A DNA stretch of 64,000 nt from Shinella sp. CPCC 101442 (GTDB lineage: Bacteria; Pseudomonadota; Alphaproteobacteria; Rhizobiales; Rhizobiaceae). The DNA is taken from positions 248,001 through 312,000 of the forward strand of contig NZ_JALIQS010000001.1 in the NCBI RefSeq assembly GCF_024704725.1. Reading direction: 5' to 3'. The position numbers and the translations under genes are program-made. Within the stretch, counting starts at the first letter, position 1, and the number at the start of each line of letters is the position of its first letter. The notes below the pieces were generated by a model. That model did not search any database, was not told the origin of the DNA, and was given only the letters and a program-made list of their open reading frames with translations. This document shows positions 39,039 through 52,005 of the stretch, piece by piece.

Positions 39039-39229
39039 GGACGAACTCCGGAACCGAAAAACCAATGCAATGCGCGGATTTGAATAGCAACGGGATTTCG
39101 TTGCTCGCGCGCTCCATAGACCGCTCCGGGTTGGCGATCGAGAGGATCGAGACCTTGGTCGCATTGTGTGGCCACCGGCAACGAGCGCAAGCTGACGGGG
39201 TGGCTGTTCCACATCTGGAGGAGAAGCAT

Positions 39230-39331
39230 ATGGCCTGGAAGAAACCCGTCATCAAAGACATTGCCTGCGGCATGGAAATCAACATGTACGGACCTTCGGA
39301 AGACGATCCGCGTCCGGATCATCCGTTCTGA
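39230..39331 (+). CDS. pqqA: PQQ precursor peptide PqqA
   Basis: The 33-residue peptide begins MAWKKPVIKDIACGMEINMY. Glu16 and Tyr20, spaced E-x3-Y, are the residues cross-linked by PqqE and retained in pyrroloquinoline quinone. An excellent ribosome site (GGAGGAGAAGCAT) supports the short start over the longer open frame. The stop lies within the pqqB leader (TGAGGAGACC), so the two are coupled. First gene of pqqABCDE. Confidence 0.95.
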   Translation: MAWKKPVIKDIACGMEINMYGPSEDDPRPDHPF

Positions 39332-39338
39332 GGAGACC

Positions 39339-40226
39339 GTGCGTATCGTTGTTCTCGGGGCAGGCGCCGGGGGGGGCCTGCCCCAATGGAACTGCGGCTG
39401 CCCGCAGTGCGCCGCCGCGCGGCAGGGCCTGATTGCTCCGATGAGCCAGAGCACGCTTGCCGTGAGCGTCGATGGCGAAGGCTGGGTGCTGCTCAATGCC
39501 TCGCCGGATCTGCGTCAGCAGCTCGCCGCCTGCTCGTCGCTGCATCCGAAGGGGCTGCGGGACAGCCCGGTGAAAGCGGTGGTGGTGACCAATGGCGATG
39601 TCGATCATATCGCGGGTCTTCTGACCCTGCGCGAGAAGACCGGCTTCACCCTCCATGCCACCGAGGCGACCCATCGGGTCCTTTTGGAAAATGCTGTCTT
39701 CGGCGTTCTCGATCCGGCTTTGGTGGAGCGCCGGACCATCACCCTAGACCAGCCCTTCAGCCCGCTTCCGGGCCTGATGGTCACGGCCTATGCCGTTCCG
39801 GGAAAGGTCCCGCTCTATCTCGAAGACGGCGCGCCCGATCTGGCGATGCTCGGCGAGCAGACGGTTGGGCTGCGTTTACAATCCGGGGAGCATGAGGCGC
39901 ACTACGTTCCCGGATGTGCTGCGCTGCCGGACTGGCTCGTGGATCGGCTGACGCCCGCCGCAGCCGTGCTTTTCGACGGTACAATCTGGACCGACGACGA
40001 GATGCCCCGGTCCGGCACCGGCGCCAAGACCGGCGCGCGCATGGGGCATATCGCGATGAGCGGTGCGGGCGGCTCGCTTGAACGCCTCGCCGGGCTTCGG
40101 GGCCGACGCATCTACACGCATGTCAACAACACGAACCCGGCACTGATACCCGAAAGCGCGGCACGCATCGCGATCGCCGCCGCCGGATGGGAAATCGCGA
40201 GCGATGGCATGGAGGTCGTCCTGTGA
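39339..40226 (+). CDS. pqqB: PQQ biosynthesis protein PqqB
   Basis: The 295-residue metallo-beta-lactamase-fold protein has VLGAGAGGGLPQWNCGCPQC at the N-terminus, the metal-site stretch VVTNGDVDHIAGLL, and GHIAMSGAGGSLERL and YTHVNNTNPAL near the C-terminus, all standard for PqqB. It hydroxylates a Tyr-derived intermediate in the pathway. The GTG start at 39339 is right after TGAGGAGACC. The stop overlaps the pqqC start (GTGA). Confidence 0.94.
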   Translation: MRIVVLGAGAGGGLPQWNCGCPQCAAARQGLIAPMSQSTLAVSVDGEGWVLLNASPDLRQQLAACSSLHPKGLRDSPVKAVVVTNGDVDHIAGLLTLREKTGFTLHATEATHRVLLENAVFGVLDPALVERRTITLDQPFSPLPGLMVTAYAVPGKVPLYLEDGAPDLAMLGEQTVGLRLQSGEHEAHYVPGCAALPDWLVDRLTPAAAVLFDGTIWTDDEMPRSGTGAKTGARMGHIAMSGAGGSLERLAGLRGRRIYTHVNNTNPALIPESAARIAIAAAGWEIASDGMEVVL

Positions 40227-40993
40227 GCCCGAGCCAAAAGCACGAAGACCAGCCCCTCGGCCGCGACGAATTCGAGGCGCGCCTGCGCCGGGTCGGCGAG
40301 GAGCGCTATCACGACAAACATCGCTTTCACGACCGGCTGCACGGTGGCGCCTGCACGATGGACGAGGTGCAGGCCTGGGTGATCAACCGCTGGCAATACC
40401 AGTGTTCCATTCCCATGAAGGACGCCGCTTTCTTGTCGCGTTGCCGCGATCCGGATCTGCGCCGCATCTGGCGGTCGCGCATCGAGGACCACGACGGCAG
40501 CCCCGAGGATGGCGGCGGCATCCGGCGCTGGCTGCGGCTTGCGGAAGGCGTCGGGCTGGATCCGGCCTATGTCGCCTCCGGTCGCGGCGTGATGCCGGCA
40601 ACGCGTTTCATCGTCGATGCCTATATCCGCTTCGTGCGCGATGAACCGCTCATTGCCGCGATGGCGAGTTCCCTGACCGAGATGTTCGCGCCCGCCATCC
40701 ACACGCGCCGTATCGACGGCCTGCTGGAGCATTACGATTTCGCCGATCGCGAAACGATCTCCTATTTCCGCCACCGCCTGAGCGAAGCGCCGAAGGATGT
40801 TCGGTTCACGCTCGACTGGGTGCTGACCCACGCCGCGACCCGCACGGAGCAGGAAGCCGCGATCGCCGCGCTGACCTTCAAGACGGATGTGCTCTGGGCG
40901 CAGCTCGATGCGCTCTGGGGCGGCTATGTCGAGGGACACAGACCGCCGGGCGCCTGGAAGCCCGGCGAAGGACAAAGGATGGAGCGCGCATGA
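40223..40993 (+). CDS. pqqC: Pyrroloquinoline-quinone synthase PqqC
   Basis: The 256-residue cofactorless oxidase of heme-oxygenase-like fold closes the last ring of PQQ. It contains YHDKHRFHDRLHGGACT, WVINRWQYQCSIPMKDAAFL, RIEDHDGSPEDGGGIRRW and SSLTEMFAPAIHTRRI, which carry the active-site His, Arg and Tyr residues. The GTG start overlaps the pqqB stop (GTGA) and the stop overlaps pqqD (ATGA). Length is normal. Confidence 0.95.
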   Translation: MSPSQKHEDQPLGRDEFEARLRRVGEERYHDKHRFHDRLHGGACTMDEVQAWVINRWQYQCSIPMKDAAFLSRCRDPDLRRIWRSRIEDHDGSPEDGGGIRRWLRLAEGVGLDPAYVASGRGVMPATRFIVDAYIRFVRDEPLIAAMASSLTEMFAPAIHTRRIDGLLEHYDFADRETISYFRHRLSEAPKDVRFTLDWVLTHAATRTEQEAAIAALTFKTDVLWAQLDALWGGYVEGHRPPGAWKPGEGQRMERA

Positions 40994-41262
40994 CGGACGA
41001 TCCCGTTCCCCTCCTCCCGCGCGGAACCCGCCTGCACCATGACCGGGTGCGCGGCACGATGGTTCTGCTCGTTCCGGAGCGCGCGCTTCTGCTCGACGAA
41101 ATCGGCAGCGCCATTCTCGGCGAGGTCGATGGCCGCTTGTCCCTCGGAGCGATTTCCGCCCGCCTCGCAGAGCGCTATGGCGCGCCGGAGGCGGATGTTG
41201 CGTCGGATGTCCGCGACTTTCTCGGCGGGCTCGTTGCCCAGAGGCTGGTGGACTATCGATGA
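40990..41262 (+). CDS. pqqD: PQQ biosynthesis peptide chaperone PqqD
   Basis: The 90-residue RiPP recognition element has LPRGTRLHHDRVRGTMVLLV and EVDGRLSLGAISARLAERYG, the beta-strand and helix that hold the PqqA leader for PqqE. It overlaps both neighbours by four bases. Not fused to PqqC or PqqE, unlike in some methylotrophs. Confidence 0.93.
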   Translation: MTDDPVPLLPRGTRLHHDRVRGTMVLLVPERALLLDEIGSAILGEVDGRLSLGAISARLAERYGAPEADVASDVRDFLGGLVAQRLVDYR

Positions 41263-42347
41263 CGGACCGTCCCGCCCCACCGATCGCCATGCTCGCGGAA
41301 CTGACGCATCGCTGTCCGCTGTCCTGCTCCTATTGCTCGAACCCGCTGGAGCTGACAGCGCGTGACAATGAGCTGTCGACCGAAGTCTGGTCGGACGTCT
41401 TTCGCCAGGCCGCCGATCTCGGAGTGCTGCAACTGCACCTTTCCGGCGGCGAACCGGCATCCCGGCGCGATCTCGAAGCCCTCGTGAAGGCGGCGCGGGA
41501 TGCGGCACTCTACGTCAACCTGATCACGTCGGGCATCGGGCTCACGCCGGCGCGTCTCGATGCGCTCGAAGTAGCAGGGATCGACCACGTCCAGCTCTCG
41601 CTGCAGGCGACGACGGCCGAAAAGGCCGACTGGGTCGGAGGCTACAAGGGGGGATTTGTCCGCAAACTCGCCTTCGCCGACGAAGTCCGTCGGCGCGGCA
41701 TTCCCTTGACGGTCAATGCCGTCATGCACCGGCACACGATCGACGACATCGAGGCCGCAATCGACTTCGCCGCCGATCTTGGCGCCCGCCGGATCGAGGT
41801 GGCCTGCGTGCAATTCTACGGATGGGCTCTGGCAAACCGCGCCGCCCTGCTCCCGACGCGCGCACAAGTCCAACATGCCAAGGAGGCCGTCGCCGCCGCA
41901 CGTCGGGTCTATGCCGGGCGCATGACCATCGATTTCGTTCCGCCCGACTACTATGCCGATTACCCCAAGGCCTGCATGGGCGGCTGGGGCTCGACCGGCA
42001 TCAACATAGCCCCCGACGGCGCCGTCCTGCCGTGCCACGCCGCGGCGACCATCCCCGGTCTCGTATTCGACCGGGTGACCGAAACATCCCTTTCGACCAT
42101 CTGGTACGAGGGCGCCGCCTTCAACGCGTTCCGGGGCCATGAATGGATGCAGGAGCCTTGCCGGAGCTGCGCCCGGCGCGACCACGACCATGGCGGCTGC
42201 CGCTGCCAGGCGATGGCGCTGGCCGCCGATGCCACGGCGACCGACCCGGTCTGCCGCCATGCGCCGGCTCGCCCCATCGTGGATCATATCATCGCCGAAC
42301 AGGCTTCGACGGCCGCGCACTTCACCTACCGAACCCACAAGCACTAG
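41259..42347 (+). CDS. pqqE: PqqA peptide cyclase (radical SAM) PqqE
   Basis: The 362-residue radical SAM enzyme has the cluster motif C19-x3-C23-x2-C26 (CPLSCSYC), SGGEPASRRDLEALV for SAM binding, and a C-terminal SPASM region (CMGGWGSTGINIAPDG, then CRSCARRDHDHGGCRCQ) with auxiliary iron-sulfur ligands. It joins Glu16 and Tyr20 of PqqA, guided by PqqD. No pqqF protease is present in the window, so the peptide is trimmed by a product encoded elsewhere. Confidence 0.95.
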   Translation: MTDRPAPPIAMLAELTHRCPLSCSYCSNPLELTARDNELSTEVWSDVFRQAADLGVLQLHLSGGEPASRRDLEALVKAARDAALYVNLITSGIGLTPARLDALEVAGIDHVQLSLQATTAEKADWVGGYKGGFVRKLAFADEVRRRGIPLTVNAVMHRHTIDDIEAAIDFAADLGARRIEVACVQFYGWALANRAALLPTRAQVQHAKEAVAAARRVYAGRMTIDFVPPDYYADYPKACMGGWGSTGINIAPDGAVLPCHAAATIPGLVFDRVTETSLSTIWYEGAAFNAFRGHEWMQEPCRSCARRDHDHGGCRCQAMALAADATATDPVCRHAPARPIVDHIIAEQASTAAHFTYRTHKH

Positions 42348-42356
42348 CGGCAGCTT

Positions 42357-43334
42357 TCAAGCGCGGAAATCGACCGCCAGCGACCGCACGTCGGCGACGT
42401 AACGCTGCAAGCGGGCGGCGTTGTCGGCAAGGTCCGGACGGGCCGCAGCCCAGCCGATATAGGTGAGCGCACGCAAGAGCAGGAAGAGCGGCAGATATTC
42501 GAATTCCGCCTGCGCCTGCGGCCTGATGGCGGCGTAACCGTCAAGCAATGCGGCACGCAGGATCGGATAGGATTGTTCGCGCCGGTTGCGCAGCAGCGTC
42601 GTCGCCAGGTCGAACAGGCGGAAGCCGAAGCCGCAATCGTCGAAATCGATGAAAGCGACCGCACCTTTGCGCACGAAGATGTTTTCCCGCACGATATCGG
42701 CGTGGATCAGGCCGTAATCGAGGCGCAACGCGACGGATGCAAGGCGAACCGAGAGCGTTTCACGCAGCGCCGTCAAATAGGTCCGGTCTTCGGCAGAGAG
42801 CGCTGCGCAATCCCAGAACCGGCCCCAGAACGGCGTTTCGCCGAGCAGGCCGGCAGCATCCCAGGCGGGACGTTCGAAACCCACCGGCTGGCGAAAGGCA
42901 TCGGCGGCACCGTGCAGCAGCGCCATTTCTCGGCCAATGGCATCGAAGATCACCGGCAGGTCGCGGCCCTCTTCGGAGAGCGGAACACCGGTCTCGCCGA
43001 GCGGTTCGCCATCGATCCAACCTATAAGGTCGGCGTAATGCGGCCCATCGCCGAAGGCGACGAGCAAGGCGCCGTTTGCCGCCGGAATCGGCTGCGGCAC
43101 GGCAAGGCCACGATCGCGCAGGTTCGCCATGAAGGCGAGTTCCGAGGCGAGTGCTGCCTGCGAATGATAGGCCGGGCGATGCAGCCGCAGTGCCGCAGGA
43201 TCGCCCCAGGCGAGCTTTACCTTGAACACCGCGTTTTCGCGGTATTTGATGAGTTCGGGCACCTGCTCCGGCAGATCCCAATGGGCAAGCGCGGCGATGG
43301 CCCGCCGCGTCAGCATCTCCTCCATGCCGCCCAT
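42357..43334 (-). CDS. APH-family kinase, hydroxylysine-kinase-like
   Basis: The roughly 325-residue small-molecule kinase of the aminoglycoside phosphotransferase fold has the catalytic loop LIHADIVRENIFVRKG and the metal motif FIDFDDCGFGFRLFDL (usually D-F-D-D in this group), with ENAVFKVKLAWGD as the ATP-binding strand. It resembles hydroxylysine kinase (AGPHD1/HYKK) and other amino-alcohol or choline-type kinases. ATG 43334 is four bases after the upstream gene's stop; other ATGs at 43358, 43325 and 43316 are possible. Directly downstream of a phospho-lyase-like gene, which strongly suggests they act in sequence. Confidence 0.75.
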   Translation of the reverse strand: MGGMEEMLTRRAIAALAHWDLPEQVPELIKYRENAVFKVKLAWGDPAALRLHRPAYHSQAALASELAFMANLRDRGLAVPQPIPAANGALLVAFGDGPHYADLIGWIDGEPLGETGVPLSEEGRDLPVIFDAIGREMALLHGAADAFRQPVGFERPAWDAAGLLGETPFWGRFWDCAALSAEDRTYLTALRETLSVRLASVALRLDYGLIHADIVRENIFVRKGAVAFIDFDDCGFGFRLFDLATTLLRNRREQSYPILRAALLDGYAAIRPQAQAEFEYLPLFLLLRALTYIGWAAARPDLADNAARLQRYVADVRSLAVDFRA

Positions 43335-43338
43335 CGGC

Positions 43339-44622
43339 TCAGAGCCCGCCCAGGACATCGTCGAGCGTCGACAACATCAGGTCCGCGTTCTCTTTCGAGA
43401 AAGGCATGGGCGGGCGGATTTTCGTGGCGTTCTGGTGGATGCCGAGCTTGCCCATCAGCACGCCGCGCTCGCGCATGCCGTTGATGACGCGGGTGGCAAT
43501 GTCGGAGGCCGGGGTCTTCTCCGCCCGGTCGAGCACCAGTTCGGCGCCGAAGAACAGGCCGCTGCCGCGTACATTGCCGATCAGCGGGTGTTTATCCGCC
43601 AGTTTCTGCAGGCCTGCACGGGCATAGGCGCCGACGTCCAGCGCGTTTTCCTGCAGCTTTTCATCCTCCAGCACGTCGAGCACCGCCAGGGCCGCCGCGC
43701 AGGAGACGGGATTGCCGCCGAAGGTGTTGAAGTAGCGAAAAGCCTTGCGGAAGGCGTTCAGCGTCTCGGCACCGGCGACGACACCGCCGACCGGATGGCC
43801 ATTGGCCATCGGTTTGCCGAGGGTAACGACGTCGGGGACGATACCCGCTTTCTGGTGGCCCCACATATGGGTGCCGGCGCGGCCGAAACCGGGCTGCACC
43901 TCATCGCAGATCACGATGCCGCCAGCCTTGCGCACGGCAGCGACGGCGGGGGCGAGAAAGTTTTCCGGCAGGTCCGGAAAACCCTCATTGGCGAAGAAGG
44001 GATCGATGATCAGCGCGGAAAAGCCGAAGGGGCTTTCCTGCAACGAGGCGATGGCCTCCTCCACCTTCACCGCCCAGGCCGTTGCGAAAGCAGCACCGCC
44101 CTCGCCGCCGAGCGGCCGATAGGCATCGGGTGCGGGCACATGGCGGACATGGCCGCCATAGCCGCCGACCGGCGGCATGCGGGTCGAAAGCTGCGATACC
44201 GCCGTGGTGTTGCCGTGATAGGTGAAGTCGGTGGCGATCACGCCCGTCTTGCCGGTCACGGCCTGCGCCATGCGCAGCGCCACGTCGTTCGCCTCGCTGC
44301 CGGTGCAGGTCAGGATGGCACTGTCGAGGCTCTTGTCGAAGGTCGCGGTCAGGCGCTCGACATAGTCAAGGATGCCTTCGTGCAGATAGCGGGTGTGGGT
44401 GTTGAGCGTCGAGGCCTGCCGGCAGATCGCCTCCACAACGCGCGGATGGCAATGGCCGACATGCGGCACATTGTTGTAGCAGTCGAGATACTGTTTCCCG
44501 TCCGCATCCCACAGCCACACACCCTCGCCCTTCACGAGATGAACCGGGTCCTCGTAGAAAAGCGACATGTTGCGGCCGAGCAGTTTTTCGCGCCGGGCGC
44601 GCAGAGCCTCCTCGCCCGCCAT
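43339..44622 (-). CDS. Class III PLP enzyme, ethanolamine-phosphate/phosphohydroxylysine phospho-lyase-like
   Basis: The 427-residue fold-type I protein includes YLDCYNNVPHVGHCHPRVVE, TCTGSEANDVALRMAQAV, TDFTYHGNTTA, VICDEVQPGFGRAGTHMWG and TLGKPMANGHPVGGVVAG, where the Lys is the PLP lysine. NNVPHVGHCHP and NTHTRYLHEGILDY match human AGXT2L1/AGXT2L2 phospho-lyases closely from memory, more than ordinary omega-aminotransferases. Those enzymes eliminate phosphate and ammonia from phosphorylated amino alcohols to give aldehydes. The partner kinase is the next gene. Start at ATG 44622 is just before the upstream gene's stop; the longer open frame is inside that gene. Confidence 0.8.
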   Translation of the reverse strand: MAGEEALRARREKLLGRNMSLFYEDPVHLVKGEGVWLWDADGKQYLDCYNNVPHVGHCHPRVVEAICRQASTLNTHTRYLHEGILDYVERLTATFDKSLDSAILTCTGSEANDVALRMAQAVTGKTGVIATDFTYHGNTTAVSQLSTRMPPVGGYGGHVRHVPAPDAYRPLGGEGGAAFATAWAVKVEEAIASLQESPFGFSALIIDPFFANEGFPDLPENFLAPAVAAVRKAGGIVICDEVQPGFGRAGTHMWGHQKAGIVPDVVTLGKPMANGHPVGGVVAGAETLNAFRKAFRYFNTFGGNPVSCAAALAVLDVLEDEKLQENALDVGAYARAGLQKLADKHPLIGNVRGSGLFFGAELVLDRAEKTPASDIATRVINGMRERGVLMGKLGIHQNATKIRPPMPFSKENADLMLSTLDDVLGGL

Positions 44623-44623
44623 C

Positions 44624-45982
44624 CTACTTGCCTTCCGCCGCGCTGAGGCCTTCATCGAGCGCCGAGACGATCTTCTGCACATCGGCCGCGGTGATGATGA
44701 GCGGCGGCGAGATGATGACGTTGGCACCAGAGGTACGCACCATGACGCCCGCCTCATAGGTCGTGTCATAGACCTTCTGCACCACATCCTTGGCGGCAGC
44801 GCTCTTCTTGGCGCGGTCGGAGACAAGCTCCAGCGCCGCCATCAGGCCCTTGCCGCGCACGTCGCCCACGAGCTCGTGCTTCGCTTTCAGGCCTTCGAGG
44901 CCTGCCATGAGTTCGATGCCGCGGGCGGCGGCATTGGCGGCCGTGTTGACCTTGGCGGTCTCCCTGAGCGTCGCAAGGGCGGCGGCCGCACCCACCGGAT
45001 GGCCGGAATAGGTGTAGCCATGGCCGATCGAGCCGAACGAATCCTTGTTGGATTCGAAGGCCGTCGCCACCTTGTCGGAGATCATTAAGGCGCCGAAGGG
45101 GAAATAGCCGTTGGTGATCGCCTTGGCGGTCGTCATCATGTCGGGCTTGACGCCCCAGCCGCGCGAGCCGGTCCAGGCGCCAGTTCGGCCGAAGGCGGTG
45201 ATGACCTCGTCGGCGATCAGGAGGATGCCGTGTTTGTCGCAGATGGCGCGCATAAGCGGCATGAAGGTTTCATGCGGCACGATCACGCCGCCCGCCCCCA
45301 GCACCGGCTCCATGATGAAGGCCGCGATCGTATCGGCGCCCTGGAAGGCCACCTCGTCCTCGAACTGGCGGGCGATCGCCTGCGCGATCTCGGCCGGATC
45401 GGTCGTGTTGAACGGATTGCGATAGGGATAGGGCGCGGCGAGATGGAAGACGCCGGGCAGGAGCGGCTCGTAGTTGCGGCGGAAATTGGCGTTGCCGTTG
45501 ACCGAGGCGCCGCCGAAATGCGTGCCGTGATAACCCTTCTTGAGCGCCACGAACTTGGTGCGTTCCGGCTGGCCGTTGATCTTGTGGAACTGGCGGGCGA
45601 GCCTGAGCGCCGTCTCCACCGAATCAGAACCGCCCGACGTGAAGAACGAGCGCGTCAGGCCGTCCTCCTTGAAGAATTCGGCAAGTTCATAGGACAGTTC
45701 GATCAGGGGCGAATTGGTGGTGCCTCGGAAGGTGGAGTAGTAGGGCAGCGTGTCCAGTTGGTCGCGGATCGCCTGCTTCACCGGCTCGCAGGAATAGCCG
45801 AGATTGACGTTCCACAGGCCGCCGACGGCGTCGAGCACCGTCTTGCCATGGATATCCACCACATCCACGCCCGCGCCGCCCTGAATGATGCGCGGCGGCT
45901 TGGCCTGCATTTCAGCCGGATGGGCCATGGGGTGCCAGAGATGGCGGGCATTGTTCTCGATCAGGAAGTTGGAATCGCGCAT
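44624..45982 (-). CDS. Class III omega-aminotransferase
   Basis: The 452-residue PLP enzyme has HLWHPMAHPAEMQAK, FTSGGSDSVETALRLARQF, KGYHGTHFGGASVNGN, LIADEVITAFGRTGAW and MMTTAKAITNGYFPFGALMI with the PLP lysine. These are typical of omega-amino acid/polyamine:pyruvate aminotransferases. It is clearly a different branch from the neighbouring phospho-lyase-like enzyme and probably acts as a true transaminase on an amine or beta-amino acid. The gene overlaps or abuts both neighbours in the minus-strand operon. Substrate not assignable. Confidence 0.82.
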   Translation of the reverse strand: MRDSNFLIENNARHLWHPMAHPAEMQAKPPRIIQGGAGVDVVDIHGKTVLDAVGGLWNVNLGYSCEPVKQAIRDQLDTLPYYSTFRGTTNSPLIELSYELAEFFKEDGLTRSFFTSGGSDSVETALRLARQFHKINGQPERTKFVALKKGYHGTHFGGASVNGNANFRRNYEPLLPGVFHLAAPYPYRNPFNTTDPAEIAQAIARQFEDEVAFQGADTIAAFIMEPVLGAGGVIVPHETFMPLMRAICDKHGILLIADEVITAFGRTGAWTGSRGWGVKPDMMTTAKAITNGYFPFGALMISDKVATAFESNKDSFGSIGHGYTYSGHPVGAAAALATLRETAKVNTAANAAARGIELMAGLEGLKAKHELVGDVRGKGLMAALELVSDRAKKSAAAKDVVQKVYDTTYEAGVMVRTSGANVIISPPLIITAADVQKIVSALDEGLSAAEGK

Positions 45983-45994
45983 GGGGATATCCTT

Positions 45995-46639
45995 TCAAAT
46001 TCCAAGCATTTTCAGCGCCTGCGCGTAGCTTTCGGCAGGCCGGGTCACGTCGAAATGCACGTAGGGGAGGTTCACGGCGTGCGCACCCTCGATGTTTTTC
46101 TTCTGGTCGTCGACGAAGACGCAGTCGGCGCGGTCGATGCCGACCTCGGCGATCACCCGTTCATAGGCGCGCGGATCGGGCTTCAGGATCTTCGTATAGG
46201 TGGCATCGACGATGACGTCGAAAAGCTCGATCAGCGGAAAACGCTTGCGGAACTCGACGCCGTAGAAGAGGTCGAGTTCGTTGGAGAGGATGGCGAGCTT
46301 CAGTCCGGCCGCCTTGGCTTTTAGGATGGCATCGCGCGCTTCCGGGCGGAGCACCAGCTCGGCATCCGCCCCGCGTGCCCGCTGCACGAAGGTCTTCATG
46401 TCCGTCCACTCTTCGCCGAGCAGGCTGCCCACCTCACGGGTGCGGGTCATCCAGTAGTCGCGCTCGGTGATTTCCCGCGCCTGCATCGACACCCAGAGCG
46501 GGTCGGTCGCGGGATCGAAGGGGCCACGCCACGTCAGGGTGCCCGCCGGCAGGCCGAGCGCGCGTTCGGTGATGTCATGCGTCTCGAACAGCGTGCGGGT
46601 GACGACCCCGCCGAAATCGAGGATCAGTGCCTTGGTCAT
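45995..46639 (-). CDS. HAD-superfamily hydrolase
   Basis: The 214-residue protein has a modified HAD motif I (ILDFGGVVTRTLFE, where the second Asp is replaced by Gly-Val), motif II LAILSNE, Lys in TYTKILKPDPRAYE and motif IV VFVDDQKKNIEGA. This pattern is like the epoxide-hydrolase N-terminal/HAD-IA-v3 group; loss of the usual second Asp makes phosphatase activity uncertain. ATG 46639 overlaps the stop of the upstream Tm-1-like gene (ATGA). Confidence 0.78.
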   Translation of the reverse strand: MTKALILDFGGVVTRTLFETHDITERALGLPAGTLTWRGPFDPATDPLWVSMQAREITERDYWMTRTREVGSLLGEEWTDMKTFVQRARGADAELVLRPEARDAILKAKAAGLKLAILSNELDLFYGVEFRKRFPLIELFDVIVDATYTKILKPDPRAYERVIAEVGIDRADCVFVDDQKKNIEGAHAVNLPYVHFDVTRPAESYAQALKMLGI

Positions 46640-47892
46640 GCGATACGGCCTTTCTCGACGATGCCTTCGGCAACCCAGCGATCGAAGACTTCCAAAGCCT
46701 TGGCGGCGAAGGCCGGGGCGTTGATATGCGTATCGACCTCCTCGAAGGCGACGGCGGCGGTTACGACCTTGCGCATCTCGTCCAGGAAGGCAGCGAGGGC
46801 GGCGGGCTCGTGCAGCGGCTCGCCCTCCTGGTCCCATTCCTGAATGCCTTGCGACGGCAGGAGGAAGGCGACGGGAGCAGAGGCGCCGGCCATCTTGGCG
46901 GCGACGACGCGGGCGACCTCCCGGCGCTGCTCGGGCGAGACCGTCACGGAGGCGATCAGCCGGTTGTGAGCATGATAGGGCCGGCCGGCAAAGCGTGCAG
47001 GCGTATCCTGCCAGGCTGGCATGTCCACCATGTCGACGGCGCCGGGTGCGACGATCTGCGGAATGCCGGCGCGACCGGCATTTTCCAGACGATCCGGCCC
47101 CGAGGTGACAACAGAACCGTTTTCGGCATTGGTGACTTCCTGGATGCAAAAATCGAAGACGGCGGCAAAGCCTCTGTCTGCGGCCACGGCCTCATAGGCC
47201 CGGCCGCCCATGCCGGTGGCATGGAAGACGGCGACGTCATAGCCGCGTTTTTCCAGCTCCGGCTTCAGGTATTTCATATATTTGAGGCAGGAGGAGCCGA
47301 GCGATGTCATGCCGATCAAGGGCCGCACACGGTCCGGCCGTTCGGCAGCCTTCGCCGCGCCGACGACGGCGCCACAGGCCTGCGACAGCACCGCCCGGCA
47401 GATCGGGTTCAATCCATAGAGCCCGCCGGCCCATAGGATCATCATGAGGTCGGGCGCGATACGCTCCGGCGGCAGGAGATGGGAGTAGGCAATGGTGGAG
47501 ACGATGAACTTCGGCACGCCGAGCGGCAGCACGGCGGCGACGTCGAGCGCCAGATCCGTGCCGAGCGAACCGCCGAGCGCGATCATGCCGTCCACCGCAC
47601 CGGCATCCGAGAGCCCGCGCACCAGTTCGGCCGCCCCCTTGGCCATCAGCGCCATGGCGGTATTTTCGTCACCACTGTCGACGATGTTCTGAATGCTCGT
47701 ACCAGCAGCCTTGGCGATGTCGTGCTTGGAGTGCTCAGGCGCATAGGGCGGCTCGCCGAGCACACTGACATCGACCATGACGGGAACGCCGCCGGCCTTG
47801 CCGATGACTTCGGCCATGAACAGCAGTTCTTCGCTCTTGGTGTCACCGGTGCCGATCACCAGAATCTTCGGCGGACGGGCGCTCAGGCTCAT
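46636..47892 (-). CDS. Tm-1-like ATP-binding domain protein (UPF0261)
   Basis: The 418-residue cytoplasmic protein of the UPF0261/Tm-1-like family has ILVIGTGDTKSEELLFMAEV, DGMIALGGSLGTDLALDVAA, RPLIGMTSLGSSCLKYM, GYDVAVFHATGMGGRAYEA and PGAVDMVDMPAW. The family includes the ATP-binding N-terminal domain of tomato Tm-1; the bacterial role is unknown and often lies in catabolic operons. ATG 47892 gives the expected start. First gene of the minus-strand operon, divergent from hpaD, with a TTAACATG motif at 48005. Confidence 0.85.
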   Translation of the reverse strand: MSLSARPPKILVIGTGDTKSEELLFMAEVIGKAGGVPVMVDVSVLGEPPYAPEHSKHDIAKAAGTSIQNIVDSGDENTAMALMAKGAAELVRGLSDAGAVDGMIALGGSLGTDLALDVAAVLPLGVPKFIVSTIAYSHLLPPERIAPDLMMILWAGGLYGLNPICRAVLSQACGAVVGAAKAAERPDRVRPLIGMTSLGSSCLKYMKYLKPELEKRGYDVAVFHATGMGGRAYEAVAADRGFAAVFDFCIQEVTNAENGSVVTSGPDRLENAGRAGIPQIVAPGAVDMVDMPAWQDTPARFAGRPYHAHNRLIASVTVSPEQRREVARVVAAKMAGASAPVAFLLPSQGIQEWDQEGEPLHEPAALAAFLDEMRKVVTAAVAFEEVDTHINAPAFAAKALEVFDRWVAEGIVEKGRIA

Positions 47893-48004
47893 CAACCATT
47901 CCTCCTCGTTGGTATGGCGGGCTCTACCGGGACATCCATTCGGTTCTCCCGGCGTCAAGCCCGATCCGCACACCCTACCCCTCCGGCATGAGCAAGCGGA
48001 TTAC

Positions 48005-48016
48005 TTAACATGAGAA
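48005..48016. promoter_or_regulatory. TTAACATG operator-like site (UPF0261 side)
   Basis: TTAACATGAGAA keeps the left half of the TTAACATGTTAA palindrome seen at 49140. It lies about 115 bases upstream of the UPF0261 start. Confidence 0.45.
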
Positions 48017-48065
48017 TTAATCTGGCAAGAAACCAAACGCATTGCAAGTCTATATTTGAAGCGTT

Positions 48066-48082
48066 GGTTCAGATGTTGAACC
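48066..48082. promoter_or_regulatory. GGTTCA-N5-TGAACC inverted repeat
   Basis: A 17-base inverted repeat with perfect 6-base arms, midway between the divergent genes. It is distinct from the TTAACATG sites and may be a second regulator's operator. Confidence 0.45.
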
Positions 48083-48104
48083 ATTGATGTCAGCCGGTTG
48101 ATAT

Positions 48105-48116
48105 TTAACATGTTTA
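48105..48116. promoter_or_regulatory. TTAACATG operator-like site ahead of hpaD
   Basis: TTAACATGTTTA, 11 of 12 bases of the perfect palindrome at 49140. It lies 75 bases before the hpaD start, where a MarR repressor could block transcription. Confidence 0.55.
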
Positions 48117-48191
48117 GTATTTGATCTGGATCAACGTGCGCTCGTCCGCCCCGGTTATCCTTTTCCCACACGGCCAAAGGAGGAGAAAGCC

Positions 48192-49043
48192 ATGGGAACC
48201 CTGTCGCTCGCTGCCAAGATCACGCATGTCCCATCCATGTTCATTTCCGAAATGCCCGGCCCGAACCACGGCTGCCGACAGGCCGCGATCGACGGATTGA
48301 AAGAGATCGGTCGGCGCTGCGATACGTTCGGCGTCGATACGATCGTCGTCTTCGACACGCACTGGCTGGTCAACACGGCCTATCACATCAATGCCCGCGA
48401 GCGGTACAAGGGCATCTATACGAGCAACGAATTCCCCCACTTCATCCAGAACCTCGACTACGACTATCGCGGCGCCCCTGAGCTCGGCGACAACATCGCC
48501 CGCCGCGTCTCGGCCGAAGGCATCCGCATGATGGCGCATCACGTCGATACGCTGGAACTGGAATATGGCACGCTCGTGCCGATGCGCTACATCAACGCCG
48601 ACGCCCGCTTCCGGGTTCTGTCGATCTCGGCCTGGTGCCCCTGGCACGAGATGGAGGAAAGTTTCCGCATCGGCCGCGCGGTGCGCGAAGCGATTGAAGC
48701 GAGCGGCTGCAACGCCGCGATCCTCGCCAGCGGCTCGCTTTCGCACCGCATCCACGACAACAACGCCGCGCCCGCCGGCATCCACACCATCTCCGACGAG
48801 TTCTACAAGCAGGTGGATCTGCGCGTGCTCGACCTCTGGCGCGAAGGCCGCCACGACGAATTCGTGAAGATGCTGCCGCTCTATTCGAAGCTCTGCCACG
48901 GCGAAGGCTTCATGCATGACACCGCCATGCTTTTTGGCGCGCTCGGCGGTGAGCGTTATGGCGGCCAGGCCGAAATCCTGACAGAGTATTTTACCTCGTC
49001 CGGCACGGGGCAGGTCAACGCCGTTTTTCCACTCGCGGCCTGA
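48192..49043 (+). CDS. hpaD: 3,4-dihydroxyphenylacetate 2,3-dioxygenase
   Basis: The 283-residue class III (LigB-type) extradiol dioxygenase opens the ring of homoprotocatechuate. It includes FISEMPGPNHGCRQAAIDGL, IVVFDTHWLVNTAYHINAR, IYTSNEFPHFIQNLDYDYRG and ILASGSLSHRIHDN, where the His residues bind Fe/Mn, and matches HpaD/HpcB proteins well. ATG 48192 follows AAGGAGGAGAAAGCC. The other hpa pathway genes (semialdehyde dehydrogenase, isomerase, hydratase, aldolase) are not in the window. The substrate is inferred from family and the HpaR-like neighbour. Confidence 0.87.
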   Translation: MGTLSLAAKITHVPSMFISEMPGPNHGCRQAAIDGLKEIGRRCDTFGVDTIVVFDTHWLVNTAYHINARERYKGIYTSNEFPHFIQNLDYDYRGAPELGDNIARRVSAEGIRMMAHHVDTLELEYGTLVPMRYINADARFRVLSISAWCPWHEMEESFRIGRAVREAIEASGCNAAILASGSLSHRIHDNNAAPAGIHTISDEFYKQVDLRVLDLWREGRHDEFVKMLPLYSKLCHGEGFMHDTAMLFGALGGERYGGQAEILTEYFTSSGTGQVNAVFPLAA

Positions 49044-49139
49044 CCGGTTCAGGCCGCGTATGCGGCCATCCCTTGAGAGAACGCGCCAGCAAGCCGGCCA
49101 CACACCTGTCTTCTCGCCCTTGACAGCCCTCCCATGTTT

Positions 49140-49151
49140 TTAACATGTTAA
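49140..49151. promoter_or_regulatory. Perfect TTAACATGTTAA palindrome ahead of the decarboxylase
   Basis: A 12-bp perfect palindrome 83 bases before the decarboxylase start, between hpaD and that gene. The same core recurs at 48105 and 48005, making it a good candidate operator for the MarR/HpaR-like protein at 50660. Confidence 0.6.
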
Positions 49152-49234
49152 TTAAAACACCCCTGAAGGAGCCCAGGGGCCATTGCAATTGCACATCCGA
49201 GCGCCGAAAAAGGCAACCGGACAGGGAGTGAGAC

Positions 49235-50641
49235 ATGGACAGCGAAGAATTCCGCCAGTGGTCGCGAACAGTGGCCGATTGGGGCGCCGACTACCGTGCC
49301 GGCCTGCGCGAGCGGCCAGTAAGGGCGCAGACGAAGCCGGGCGACATCATCAAACAGATCGCCGATGCGGCGCCGGAATCCGGCGAAGCGATGGACGCGA
49401 TCTTCGCCGATTTCGAGCGTATCATTCCCGATGGCCTCACCCATTGGCAACATCCGCGCTTCTTCGCCTATTTCCCGGCCAATGCCGCGCCGGTATCGGT
49501 GATCGCGGATTACCTCATCACGTCGGTCGCCGCCCAGTGCATGCTCTGGCAGACCTCACCGGCCGCAACCGAGCTGGAAACCCGCGTCGTCGACTGGCTG
49601 CGCCAGGCCATGGGCCTGCCCGACGGCTTTGCCGGCGTCATCCAGGATTCCGCCTCCACCGCCACGCTCGCCGCCGTGCTCGTCATGCGCGAGAAGGCGC
49701 TGGCCTGGAAGGGCAACAGCGAGGGGCTGGCGGCGCACAAGGCCGTGCGCGTCTACGCCTCCAAACAGGTCCACACCTCCATCGACCGCGCGATCTGGAT
49801 CGCCGGCATCGGCGAGGCGAACCTCGTGCGCATCCCGACCAAGGGGCCTCTCAACGGCATGGACCCGGAGGCGCTGGACGCCGCCATCAAGTCGGATCTG
49901 GCAGCCGGCCACATCCCCGCCGGCGTCATCGCCTGCACCGGCGGCACCTCGATCGGCGCCTGCGATCCGATCCGCGCCGTCGCTGCTGTCGTCAAGGCGC
50001 ACGGGCTCTACCTGCATGTCGATGCCGCCTGGGCGGGATCGGCGATGATCTGCCCGGAATTCCGCACCTTGTGGGACGGCGTCGAGGAGGCGGATTCCAT
50101 CGTTTTCAACCCGCACAAATGGCTCGGCGCGAATTTCGATTGCTCGGTGCAATTCATCCGCAGCCCGGAAGACCAGGTCCGCACGCTCGCCATCCAGCCG
50201 GAATATCTGAAGACCCACGGCCATGACGGCATCATCAACTATTCCGAATGGTCGGTGCCGCTCGGCCGCCGTTTCCGCGCGCTGAAACTATGGTTCCTCA
50301 TGCGCTATCATGGGCTCGAGGGCCTGCGCGGCATGATCCGCAATCATGTGGCGTGGTCGGAGGAACTGGCGGAACGCCTTGCCAAGGAACCGGATTTCGA
50401 GATCGTCAGCACGCCGGTGCTATCGCTCTTCTCCTTCCGCCACACGGGTGGTGCAGACGCCGACCAGCACAATATCGCTCTCGTCAACGCCATCAACGAC
50501 GATGGCCGCATCTACCTCACGCAGACGCGCGTGGAAGGCCGCATCGCCATCCGCTTCCAGGCCGGCCAGTTCGAAATGACACGTGACGATGCCGAGACCG
50601 CCTTTACGGTCATCACCGAGATCGCCCGCGGACGGATATAG
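49235..50641 (+). CDS. PLP-dependent aromatic-L-amino-acid decarboxylase
   Basis: The 468-residue group II decarboxylase has HPRFFAYFPANAAPVSVIAD, the PLP lysine in FNPHKWLGANFDCSV, and VYASKQVHTSIDRAIWIAG with the stacking His. The catalytic loop is IINYSEWSVPLGRRFRALKL, where the loop Tyr that protonates the quinonoid is kept, so decarboxylation rather than aldehyde synthesis is expected. It would turn DOPA, tyrosine, tryptophan or a hydroxyphenylserine into the amine. Placement next to hpaD favours a catechol or phenol amino acid; this is inference. Confidence 0.88.
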   Translation: MDSEEFRQWSRTVADWGADYRAGLRERPVRAQTKPGDIIKQIADAAPESGEAMDAIFADFERIIPDGLTHWQHPRFFAYFPANAAPVSVIADYLITSVAAQCMLWQTSPAATELETRVVDWLRQAMGLPDGFAGVIQDSASTATLAAVLVMREKALAWKGNSEGLAAHKAVRVYASKQVHTSIDRAIWIAGIGEANLVRIPTKGPLNGMDPEALDAAIKSDLAAGHIPAGVIACTGGTSIGACDPIRAVAAVVKAHGLYLHVDAAWAGSAMICPEFRTLWDGVEEADSIVFNPHKWLGANFDCSVQFIRSPEDQVRTLAIQPEYLKTHGHDGIINYSEWSVPLGRRFRALKLWFLMRYHGLEGLRGMIRNHVAWSEELAERLAKEPDFEIVSTPVLSLFSFRHTGGADADQHNIALVNAINDDGRIYLTQTRVEGRIAIRFQAGQFEMTRDDAETAFTVITEIARGRI

Positions 50642-50659
50642 AAAATCGCGGCGGCGGGA

Positions 50660-51178
50660 CTATTCCTCGCCGCCCGCCTTGCCATCCAGCTTGAGGGCGG
50701 CAAGCTCCTCCAGCATGTCCAGCAGCTGCTCGACGCGCTCGGCGCCGAAGCGCGCATCGAGATCCGCATAGACGCGGCGCGAATCCGGCATGACCTCATC
50801 GATAATCGTCTGCCCCGCCGGCTCGAGCCGCAGCAGTACGCGGCGGCCGTCGGCCTTGTCCTTGTGGCGCGTGATGAAACCGCGCTCTTCAAGCGAACGC
50901 AGCATGCGCGTCAGGCTCGGCGCGAGAATGAAGGCTTTTTCCGCCACTTCGGTCGCATCGAGCAGGCCGGCTTCCGACAGCGTACGCAGCACGCGCCATT
51001 GCTGCTCGGTCACGTCGTGATCGGCGAGAATCGGGCGGAAATGGCTCATGACGGCTTCGCGCGCCTTGAGGAGGCCGATGGCAAGCGACCGCCGGCGCTC
51101 GCGCCGCGGCTTGTCTTTTGCCGCACCGGCGGGCGTCGTGTCGGGGGGCATCGTGTCCACAGAGGCATCCTTCGTCAT
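50660..51178 (-). CDS. MarR-family regulator, HpaR-like
   Basis: The 172-residue protein has the winged-helix pattern of HpaR, the homoprotocatechuate operon repressor: LAIGLLKAREAVMSHFRPIL, DVTEQQWRVLRTLSEAGLLD, APSLTRMLRSLEERGFITRH and DGRRVLLRLEPAG. ATG 51178 follows GAGGCAGG; the longer frame lacks a ribosome site. A charged N-terminal extension of about 25 residues precedes the domain. It is divergent from the FAA-hydrolase gene and is the likely reader of the TTAACATG sites; that is inference. Confidence 0.83.
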   Translation of the reverse strand: MTKDASVDTMPPDTTPAGAAKDKPRRERRRSLAIGLLKAREAVMSHFRPILADHDVTEQQWRVLRTLSEAGLLDATEVAEKAFILAPSLTRMLRSLEERGFITRHKDKADGRRVLLRLEPAGQTIIDEVMPDSRRVYADLDARFGAERVEQLLDMLEELAALKLDGKAGGEE

Positions 51179-51309
51179 CCTGCCTCTATCCGCGATTTTT
51201 GGAGTTCGCGCAATCATGAGGCCATACGGGCCAGGAAGAACGAATCGATTGCCGCCTCCCGCCATGCTAGCGTGCCACGCAAATCAGCCACTCGAAAGTG
51301 CCGTACGCC

Positions 51310-52005
51310 ATGACATCGCAAGCTTACGTCTTCACTCCCGCCCCGGTTCCCGCGCTGCCGGTCGAAGGCCGTGCTGCGCTCTTTCCGGTGCACCGCGTCT
51401 ATTGCGTCGGCCGGAACTTTGCCGACCACGCCATCGAGATGGGGCACGACCCGGACAAGGAACCGCCTTTCTTCTTTCAGAAGAACCCTGACGCACTGAC
51501 GGCCCCGTCCGAAGGCTTTCCCTATCCGCCCGCAAGCAAGGACGTACATCACGAGGTCGAACTGGTCGTCGCCCTGAAAGACGGCGGCAGCGACATTCCG
51601 GTCGAACAGGCGCTCGACTGCGTCTTCGGCTATGCCATCGGCCTCGACATGACGCGCCGAGACCTGCAGGCGGAAGCGAAGAAACACGGGCGCCCCTGGG
51701 AAATCGCAAAAGCCTTCGAAAAGTCCGCGCCCTGCGGCCCGCTCCATGCCGCGAGCGATATCGGCCACCCTGCGGAGGGCGCTATCCGGCTTTCCGTCAA
51801 TGATGCGTTGCGCCAAAACGGCAATCTCGACCAGATGATCTGGAAAATACCGGAAATGATCACCTATCTCTCCCGCTTCTTCACGCTGCAACCGGGCGAC
51901 CTCATTTTCTCCGGCACGCCGGCCGGTGTGGGCGCCGTCGAAAAGGGCGATATCATGAAGGCAGAGATCGACGGCCTCGGCGCGATCACCGTCACGGTCC
52001 TCTGA
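51310..52005 (+). CDS. Fumarylacetoacetate hydrolase-family protein (fumarylpyruvate hydrolase-like)
   Basis: The 231-residue FAH-fold enzyme has YCVGRNFADHAIEMGHDPDK, FFFQKNPDALTAPSEGFPYP, the metal-site glutamates in VHHEVELVVAL, and FSGTPAGVGAVEKGD. This length and N-terminus fit NagK/acylpyruvase (FAHD1) types more than HpaG isomerase/decarboxylases, though both are possible. It could act on a ring-cleavage product of the neighbouring dioxygenase. ATG 51310 or GTG 51298 may start it; neither has a good ribosome site. Ends 14 bases into the convergent AraC gene. Confidence 0.82.
   Translation: MTSQAYVFTPAPVPALPVEGRAALFPVHRVYCVGRNFADHAIEMGHDPDKEPPFFFQKNPDALTAPSEGFPYPPASKDVHHEVELVVALKDGGSDIPVEQALDCVFGYAIGLDMTRRDLQAEAKKHGRPWEIAKAFEKSAPCGPLHAASDIGHPAEGAIRLSVNDALRQNGNLDQMIWKIPEMITYLSRFFTLQPGDLIFSGTPAGVGAVEKGDIMKAEIDGLGAITVTVL

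What the first reader, a model, noticed from the sequence alone, without database searches (positions are those of the whole stretch)
42357..51178. Candidate aromatic beta-hydroxyamine (octopamine/norepinephrine-type) pathway: kinase plus phospho-lyase feeding homoprotocatechuate cleavage
An APH kinase (42357-43334) is directly downstream of a class III PLP enzyme whose NNVPHVGHCHP and NTHTRYLH stretches resemble AGXT2L phospho-lyases. Kinase plus phospho-lyase turns ethanolamine-type alcohols into an aldehyde, ammonia and phosphate. For Ar-CH(OH)-CH2-NH2 the product would be an arylacetaldehyde, one oxidation from (homo)protocatechuate. Divergent are hpaD and an aromatic amino acid decarboxylase that could make the amine, and an HpaR-like repressor lies close by. 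I know of no described cluster of this composition. The aldehyde dehydrogenase would be encoded elsewhere. The link is inference.
Basis: partly seen in the sequence, partly recalled or inferred. Interest (0 to 1): 0.82.

Follow-up and report, generated by a model that had tools for sequence, protein, structure and literature searches.

The report
Predicted octopamine-type amine breakdown gene cluster
A soil bacterium carries, next to genes that cut open an aromatic ring, a kinase and a vitamin-B6 enzyme that together probably strip the amine off octopamine- or noradrenaline-like molecules; the same gene set recurs in many related bacteria, but the reaction itself has not been tested.

Summary
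The 43339-44622 product groups with proven PLP phospho-lyases, not transaminases. Of 80 related loci, 57 have at least one homoprotocatechuate (hpa) gene within the flanks held, up to 10 kb. In 199 family genomes, hpaE is present in 19 of 19 with the lyase orthologue and 31 of 180 without (p=1.9e-13); paralogue-only genomes show no link. A class-wide sample agrees: 7 of 8 against 9 of 377. In a genome of another family the pair follows hpaI on the same strand (L204). An aldehyde dehydrogenase, a permease, HpaB and further hpa genes are elsewhere in this Shinella genome. A palindrome between operon and hpaD (48065-48083) has two other core matches in 6.1 Mb, both at the dehydrogenase-permease-IclR locus. 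Best reading: an aryl-ethanolamine funnel (octopamine/norepinephrine type); kinase plus phospho-lyase give an arylacetaldehyde that feeds homoprotocatechuate cleavage. Substrate and chemistry are inferred. No such pathway appeared in the papers listed by my searches.

The parts
42357..43334 (-). APH-fold kinase (KIN), predicted aryl-ethanolamine O-kinase
   Evidence: PF01636 86 bits; best solved relative 6ef6, 122 bits (recalled to be the aminopropanol kinase of a mycobacterial microcompartment); H211, D213, N218, D230 near-invariant (98% or more) in 86 sequences, window included
43339..44622 (-). class III PLP phospho-lyase (LYA)
   Evidence: NCBIfam PRK06148 508 bits, PRK06149 410, next 255; PDB 5g4i 'phospholyase' 407 bits, 6tor ethanolamine-phosphate phospho-lyase 352, next 188; tree and 28 signature columns
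44624..45982 (-). class III omega-aminotransferase (AT), PRK07481 type; predicted arylethylamine transaminase
   Evidence: NCBIfam PRK07481 783 bits, cut-off 575; HpaE in 36 of 43 genomes with AT against 14 of 156 without
45995..46630 (-). HAD-IA family hydrolase, role unknown
   Evidence: PF00702 66 bits; in 58 of 80 neighbourhoods
46636..47895 (-). UPF0261 / Tm-1-like protein, role unknown
   Evidence: PRK02399 720 bits; PDB 9mpy 173 bits; in 71 of 80 neighbourhoods
48065..48083 (.). palindrome TGGTTCA-N5-TGAACCA in the divergent promoter gap, predicted IclR-type operator
   Evidence: only perfect match in the genome; core (trimmed by one base on each side) in 50 of 80 loci and in 42 of 49 divergent permease/IclR gaps; 2-mer block shuffles give 0.05 per set
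48192..49043 (+). hpaD, LigB-type 3,4-dihydroxyphenylacetate 2,3-dioxygenase
   Evidence: TIGR02298 447 bits, cut-off 316
49235..50641 (+). aromatic L-amino acid decarboxylase (AADC)
   Evidence: PF00282 309 bits; best PDB match 7xin DOPA decarboxylase, 392 bits; His180 and the loop Tyr336 near-invariant in 23 sequences, window included; in 22 of 80 neighbourhoods
50660..51265 (-). HpaR, MarR-family regulator
   Evidence: TIGR02337 167 bits, cut-off 121
51298..52005 (+). FAH-family hydrolase, HpaG-like
   Evidence: PF01557 206 bits; PRK10691 169 bits and HpaG C-terminal 140 bits, both below cut-off

Best explanation
The operon is the upper part of a route for aromatic beta-hydroxyamines, Ar-CH(OH)-CH2-NH2 (octopamine, norepinephrine or 2-phenylethanolamine type). 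The kinase phosphorylates the beta-hydroxyl with ATP. The PLP phospho-lyase then eliminates phosphate and, through an enamine/imine, ammonia, leaving an arylacetaldehyde. The adjacent omega-aminotransferase probably makes the same aldehyde from the amine without the hydroxyl (tyramine, dopamine), and AADC can supply amines from amino acids. The aldehyde dehydrogenase encoded elsewhere oxidises the aldehyde to 4-hydroxyphenylacetate or 3,4-dihydroxyphenylacetate. HpaBC hydroxylates it if needed, and HpaD-E-F-G-H-I carry it to central metabolism. An IclR-family regulator encoded next to the permease and aldehyde dehydrogenase probably controls the set through the palindrome. Shown by computation: family assignments, conserved linkage, presence of the remaining genes, shared palindrome. 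Inferred: substrate, reactions, regulator-site pairing, roles of AT, HAD and UPF0261.
For: Phospho-lyase identity: profile, PDB relatives and tree, with Lys270 near-invariant in 88 sequences. Kinase catalytic residues near-invariant in 86; LYA and KIN on the same strand in 85 of 87 loci, median 35 nt between aligned ends. hpa linkage: at least one hpa gene in 57 and at least two in 54 of 80 neighbourhoods, against only two stray 39%-identity hits in 22 paralogue neighbourhoods. Presence/absence: HpaE in 19/19 against 31/180 (family), 7/8 against 9/377 (class). Different arrangements in other families: hpaF-E-D-G-H-I-LYA-KIN-MarR-HpaB-like on one strand in L204; Ruegeria L129/L130/L132 with LigB hpaD. 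Own genome holds ALDH 80%, APC permease 82%, HpaB 89%, and hpaC, hpaF, hpaE, hpaD, hpaG, hpaH, hpaI. Shared palindrome: exactly three core sites in 6.1 Mb. A dimethylglycine-dehydrogenase-like protein near LYA-KIN in 6 of 80 loci would suit N-methylated substrates, though see against.
Against: No enzyme, growth or expression data. 23 of 80 neighbourhoods show no hpa gene within the flanks held, among them all 6 that have the dimethylglycine-dehydrogenase-like gene. Only 9 of 19 family genomes have HpaE within 20 kb of LYA. G220 has the lyase (61%) but no HpaE above cut-off. The cluster aldehyde dehydrogenase (tested on the R. leguminosarum copy) is closest to PuuC/KauB aminoaldehyde enzymes and only then to phenylacetaldehyde dehydrogenases, all below cut-off. 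AT, HAD and UPF0261 are not needed by the scheme. General chemistry: a p-hydroxybenzylic phosphate may break down spontaneously to a quinone methide, so a para-hydroxy substrate would need tight channelling. Genomes share ancestry, so the Fisher p-values overstate independence. 7 of 49 permease/IclR gaps lack the palindrome, as do the C9 hpa stretch, L140 and L204.
Confidence: 0.72

Rival explanations
1. The kinase and lyase process a small aliphatic amino alcohol (ethanolamine, 1-amino-2-propanol) or 5-hydroxylysine, as their proven relatives do, and sit beside hpa genes only because both are catabolic islands.
For: The closest proven lyases act on O-phosphoethanolamine (5g4i recalled; 6tor named so). 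Best kinase relative 6ef6 (recalled as an aminopropanol kinase).
Against: 19/19 and 7/8 co-occurrence with HpaE and repeated rearranged linkage, while paralogues in the same family show none. The genome already has two other members of the lyase clade: one beside an APH kinase with no hpa cluster around it (L057), and one fused to an APH domain in a 1035-aa frame.
Confidence: 0.12
2. The operon is a tyramine/dopamine pathway that runs through the aminotransferase; kinase and lyase have a side role, such as clearing a phosphorylated by-product.
For: AT is tied to HpaE more widely than LYA (36 of 43 genomes; 17 of 24 among those without LYA). AADC makes non-hydroxylated amines from Tyr or DOPA.
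Against: LYA-KIN also occur with hpa genes without AT within the stretch held (L204, L137), so the pair is linked to hpa on its own. A dedicated kinase suggests a hydroxylated substrate.
Confidence: 0.1
3. Another aryl C2 amino alcohol is the substrate, for example 2-amino-2-arylethanol (arylglycinol) or beta-hydroxytyrosine after decarboxylation by AADC; phospho-elimination would again give an arylacetaldehyde.
For: Same product by chemistry; AADC in 22 of 80 neighbourhoods.
Against: Proven relatives carry the amine on CH2 and the phosphate on the neighbouring carbon (ethanolamine, hydroxylysine; recalled). Beta-hydroxytyrosine is not known to me as an abundant nutrient.
Confidence: 0.06

Closest known systems
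Ethanolamine-phosphate phospho-lyase (human ETNPPL, PDB 6tor; Arthrobacter phospholyase, PDB 5g4i, source organism recalled)
   Same: Same class III PLP subfamily; 352 and 407 bits; shared signature columns such as N50, N51, V52, H54, R78, Y87, W254, F298, N299, K401.
   Different: Context is homoprotocatechuate catabolism; eight columns are conserved only in this orthologue group (W38, T134, F201, N212, F215, P216, H256, R292).
Kinase plus phospho-lyase pairs: hydroxylysine kinase with phosphohydroxylysine lyase, and the mycobacterial aminopropanol microcompartment (both recalled)
   Same: Same two-step logic, phosphorylate a beta-amino alcohol then eliminate to an aldehyde; kinase closest to 6ef6.
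   Different: Predicted aromatic product; partner genes hpa, ALDH, APC permease, IclR. Microcompartment genes were not searched for; none is among the annotated neighbours.
hpa (4-hydroxyphenylacetate/homoprotocatechuate) meta-cleavage pathway
   Same: HpaR, HpaD, HpaE-F-G-H-I and HpaBC present in the genome or cluster.
   Different: Here an amine-funnelling operon with kinase and phospho-lyase is attached.
Tyramine/dopamine catabolism through amine oxidase (recalled, Pseudomonas/E. coli)
   Same: Same arylacetaldehyde and downstream route.
   Different: Deamination by phospho-lyase or transaminase rather than an oxidase; covers beta-hydroxylated amines.
Synephrine dehydratase of Arthrobacter synephrinus (recalled)
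   Same: Also turns an aryl beta-hydroxyamine into 4-hydroxyphenylacetaldehyde.
   Different: Direct dehydration with release of methylamine; no kinase.

Membership tests
Class III PLP phospho-lyases | Sequence closest to proven phospho-lyases rather than transaminases | tested here: met
   clade with 5g4i and 6tor, support 0.944; 12 other own-genome class III enzymes outside
Class III PLP phospho-lyases | Catalytic lysine and phospho-lyase signature residues | tested here: met
   Lys270 (taken as catalytic from family knowledge) near-invariant in 88 sequences; 28 columns shared with both proven lyases and rare in transaminases
Class III PLP phospho-lyases | Releases phosphate and ammonia from an O-phospho amino alcohol, no transamination | not testable with these tools
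   Needs enzyme assay
Ordinary class III aminotransferases | Clusters with characterised transaminases | tested here: not met
   best non-lyase PDB match only 188 bits
APH-type amino-alcohol kinases | APH fold with HxD...N and DxD catalytic residues | tested here: met
   PF01636; H211, D213, N218, D230 near-invariant in 86
APH-type amino-alcohol kinases | Phosphorylates an amino alcohol | not testable with these tools
   Needs enzyme assay
Homoprotocatechuate (hpa) catabolic cluster | HpaD ring-cleavage dioxygenase | tested here: met
   TIGR02298 above cut-off in the window; a second, VOC-type copy at G000:C9
Homoprotocatechuate (hpa) catabolic cluster | hpaE-F-G-H-I encoded in the genome | tested here: met
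   hpaE and hpaF at C9 start, hpaG-H-I at C13 start
Aromatic L-amino acid decarboxylase (not aldehyde synthase) | PLP-stacking His and catalytic-loop Tyr | tested here: met
   His180 and Tyr336 align with the DOPA decarboxylase residues and are near-invariant in 23 sequences; diagnostic meaning recalled
IclR-family regulon | Common operator at the regulator's own promoter and at targets | tested here: met
   Core palindrome at 3 sites in the genome, all in this gene set
IclR-family regulon | The IclR protein binds the operator | not testable with these tools
   Needs gel shift or footprint

The most novel reading that the evidence does not exclude
A dedicated bacterial route for adrenergic-type amines (octopamine, norepinephrine; synephrine or epinephrine after N-demethylation by the dimethylglycine-dehydrogenase-like partner): beta-hydroxyl phosphorylation and PLP phospho-elimination to an arylacetaldehyde, under an IclR regulon, widespread in rhizobia and present in Roseobacter-group bacteria.
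Probability: 0.58. Interest if true: 0.8.

Novelty: new variant of a known kind. Interest (0 to 1): 0.7.

Why it matters
How bacteria break down beta-hydroxylated aromatic amines has no genetically defined route known to me. If right, this explains how root-associated bacteria could use octopamine and its plant amides, and how microbes could remove noradrenaline-like signals. It would add an aromatic substrate class to the phospho-lyases, of which only two class III members were described as documented in 2021 (PMC8154272, passages seen). It also gives a function to genes annotated only as 'aspartate aminotransferase family protein' and 'phosphotransferase'.

Tried and rejected
Rejected: lyase as an ordinary transaminase. 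Rejected: AADC as an aldehyde synthase, because the loop Tyr and His are kept. Considered and dropped: a link with the neighbouring PQQ genes, because they were not found beside the operon in the two same-genus genomes examined (L039, L040; pqqB, pqqC, pqqE) or in the 80 loci scanned with pqqC and pqqE. Literature: ten searches used; no paper on such a cluster among the rows listed, but several lists were cut far short (15 of 217, 8 of 876, 10 of 1,332), and the library holds only CC-licensed PMC papers. Two papers I wanted (phospholyase structure; hydroxylysine kinase/phospho-lyases) are not held. No structure prediction was run: by its description it returns no coordinates for pocket comparison, and the fold is not in doubt. 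The first tree had wrong reading frames for many own-genome enzymes and was replaced, where one row (own_L198) duplicates the aminotransferase.
Full report
Observation. The window lies in a genome of 6.1 Mb whose lyase is 96% identical to that of Shinella curvata; I take it as a Shinella. The kinase and PLP genes are the last two of a tight five-gene operon on the - strand: UPF0261 (46636-47895), HAD hydrolase (45995-46630), class III aminotransferase AT (44624-45982), lyase LYA (43339-44622), kinase KIN (42357-43334).

What the PLP enzyme is. Its best NCBIfam models are PRK06148 (508 bits) and PRK06149 (410), long proteins containing this domain; the next scores 255. In the PDB it matches 'phospholyase' 5g4i (407 bits) and ethanolamine-phosphate phospho-lyase 6tor (352), then drops to 188 for dialkylglycine decarboxylase. 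Its own genome has 15 class III enzymes at E<=1e-30. In the tree it groups with 5g4i, 6tor and two own-genome paralogues (support 0.944), while the other 12, AT included, fall outside. 28 columns are shared with both proven lyases and rare in transaminases; they were picked on the same alignment. Lys270 is near-invariant in 88 sequences. That 5g4i lacks transaminase activity and acts on phosphoethanolamine is recalled, not read.

What the kinase is. APH fold; the best solved relative is 6ef6 at 122 bits, which I recall as the aminopropanol kinase of a mycobacterial microcompartment. H211, D213, N218 and D230 are near-invariant in 86 sequences. LYA and KIN are on the same strand in 85 of 87 loci, median 35 nt between aligned ends.

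Conserved neighbourhood. A scan of genome contigs kept the best 80 of 357 confirmed relatives, with up to 10 kb flanks. A local tblastn count (E<=1e-20, identity >=38%) finds KIN in 78, AT 71, UPF0261 71, aldehyde dehydrogenase 66, IclR 62, HAD 58, hpaE 52, hpaF 52, APC permease 50, VOC-type hpaD 48, hpaG 47, hpaH 46, hpaI 41, hpaR 31, hpaB and hpaC 28 each, AADC 22. At least one hpa gene is present in 57 of 80 and at least two in 54; 23 show none within the flanks held. An annotated example is Rhizobium leguminosarum ATCC 14479 (hpaF and hpaG are my names for the annotated isomerase and fumarylacetoacetate hydrolase). Its order is 4-hydroxyphenylacetate 3-hydroxylase and flavin reductase; aldehyde dehydrogenase and APC permease; then IclR, UPF0261, HAD, AT, LYA and KIN, converging on hpaR; then hpaF, hpaE, hpaD, gabD, hpaG, hpaH and hpaI. 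Agrobacterium leguminum has hpaIHG-gabD-hpaDEF on the kinase side. A plasmid labelled Roseateles has LigB-type hpaD and, further off, a hydroxylase/reductase pair. The Shinella sp. WSC3-e plasmid has permease, aldehyde dehydrogenase and AADC beside the operon but no hpa gene in the 37 kb seen.

Controls. 22 neighbourhoods of lyase-clade paralogues (47-55% identical; three cut short by contig or stretch ends) from the same family show no match to KIN, AT, HAD, UPF0261, IclR or APC at the same threshold, and only stray hits: one hpaE and one hpaI at 39%, one aldehyde dehydrogenase at 49%, two GMC at 40-43%. They may have kinases too distant for this query; the own-genome paralogue does. In 199 family genomes, HpaE above the TIGR02299 cut-off occurs in 50: 19 of 19 genomes with the LYA orthologue (at least 65% identity) and 31 of 180 without (Fisher p=1.9e-13). 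Genomes with only paralogues show no excess (4 of 40 against 27 of 140, p=0.24). Class-wide (385 genomes), LYA matches at E<=1e-160 (56-71% identity apart from the own copy) occur in 8 and HpaE in 16, overlapping in 7; 9 of 377 otherwise (p=3.8e-10; without the own genome 6 of 7, p=8e-9). The exception is G220 (61%). These tests ignore shared ancestry. HpaE lies within 20 kb of LYA in 9 of 19.

Rearranged linkage in other families. In L204 (a family other than the window's) hpaR, hpaF-E-D-G-H-I, LYA, KIN, a MarR gene and an HpaB-family gene (PF11794 283 bits, PF03241 180 bits; 30% identical to the R. leguminosarum hydroxylase) lie on one strand in that order. Three Ruegeria arenilitoris loci have LigB-type hpaD, hpaE, hpaF and hpaR beside AT, aldehyde dehydrogenase, LYA, KIN and UPF0261. 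Of 13 loci that I judged from their titles to be Roseobacter-group, 6 have at least one hpa gene.

Two modules. All 19 LYA genomes also have the AT orthologue (E<=1e-170). AT occurs in 24 more, 17 of which have HpaE (11 within 20 kb), against 14 of 156 with neither (p=1.8e-10). In G153, AT, HAD and UPF0261 sit beside hpaBC and hpaFEDGHI, while LYA-KIN is on another contig. So AT is linked to hpa on its own. I infer that AT handles amines without the beta-hydroxyl, and KIN-LYA those with it.

The rest of the pathway in this genome. Aldehyde dehydrogenase (80%) and APC permease (82%) adjoin at C13:21066-24037, with IclR next to them. HpaB (89%), HpaC, HpaF, HpaE and VOC-type HpaD lie at the start of C9. 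The end of gabD plus hpaG, hpaH and hpaI lie at the start of C13. In a same-genus genome (G157, C15) these form one region. Thus each step from arylacetaldehyde to ring-cleavage products has a candidate gene. The aldehyde dehydrogenase family is broad: the R. leguminosarum copy is nearest to PuuC/KauB, then to phenylacetaldehyde dehydrogenases.

A shared operator. The gap between UPF0261 and hpaD holds TGGTTCA-GATGT-TGAACCA at 48065-48083. With up to two mismatches the genome has 13 such places. The core GGTTCA-N5-TGAACC, trimmed by one base on each side after seeing that list, occurs at three of them: here, between the APC permease and IclR genes (C13:24137), and about 20 nt upstream of an amidohydrolase-ABC transporter operon as called by my script (C13:20843). 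Chance expectation for the core is 0.22. In the 80 loci there are 56 core sites in 50 loci (2-mer block shuffles 0.05), including 42 of 49 divergent permease/IclR gaps; 421 kb of paralogue neighbourhoods have none. Seven gaps lack it, as do the C9 hpa stretch, L140 and L204. I infer that the IclR protein binds this site and that the window operon belongs to its regulon.

Substrate. HpaBC beside the cluster in 28 of 80 loci suits para-hydroxylated amines. A protein like dimethylglycine dehydrogenase (404 bits for the L052 copy) near LYA-KIN in 6 of 80 loci suits N-methylated amines such as synephrine; none of those 6 shows an hpa gene in its flanks, so this is weak. Octopamine, norepinephrine and phenylethanolamine cannot be told apart. 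The possible instability of p-hydroxybenzylic phosphates argues for channelling or for another ring pattern.

Literature. Ten searches listed no paper on such a cluster; only the listed rows were seen, and only CC-licensed PMC papers are searchable. [quoted passage not shown] Hydroxylysine, aminopropanol and synephrine comparisons are recalled.

Verdict. It is a new variant of a known kind: known enzyme families and a known lower pathway, combined for a substrate class for which I know no genetically defined route.

Noticed in passing
window 39168-42347 (+): A PQQ-type gene set (metallo-beta-lactamase fold PqqB-like, PQQC-family, PqqD, radical SAM/SPASM PqqE-like) ends convergently against the kinase; pqqB, pqqC and pqqE were not found beside the operon in the two same-genus genomes examined, so this looks like a chance neighbour.
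   Followed up: partly
L142 (NZ_CP084753.1): A plasmid deposited as 'Roseateles sp. XES5' (UNVERIFIED_ORG) carries this operon with a lyase 92% identical to the window's; it is probably a mislabelled Shinella-type replicon.
   Followed up: no
L184:7167-8825 (G000:C13): An Amidohydro_3 protein starts about 20 nt from a core palindrome; it might release amines from N-acyl conjugates such as feruloyl-octopamine, which is speculation.
   Followed up: partly
L052 and L171 (G021): Two UPF0261 copies in one genome, one beside LYA-KIN and a dimethylglycine-dehydrogenase-like gene, one beside AT and hpa genes; UPF0261 seems tied to both amine modules, function unknown.
   Followed up: no
L057 (G000:C1:482300-502200): The paralogous split kinase/lyase pair lies beside a 595-aa frame with alanine-racemase and arginase domains and an FAD oxidase (DAO) gene; the Shinella WSC3-e plasmid has an annotated alanine racemase and D-amino acid dehydrogenase near its own cluster.
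   Followed up: partly
L140:6745-9494 (Agrobacterium leguminum): A cytochrome P450 with 2Fe-2S ferredoxin and FAD reductase flank the cluster; possibly a ring or side-chain hydroxylase for related amines.
   Followed up: no
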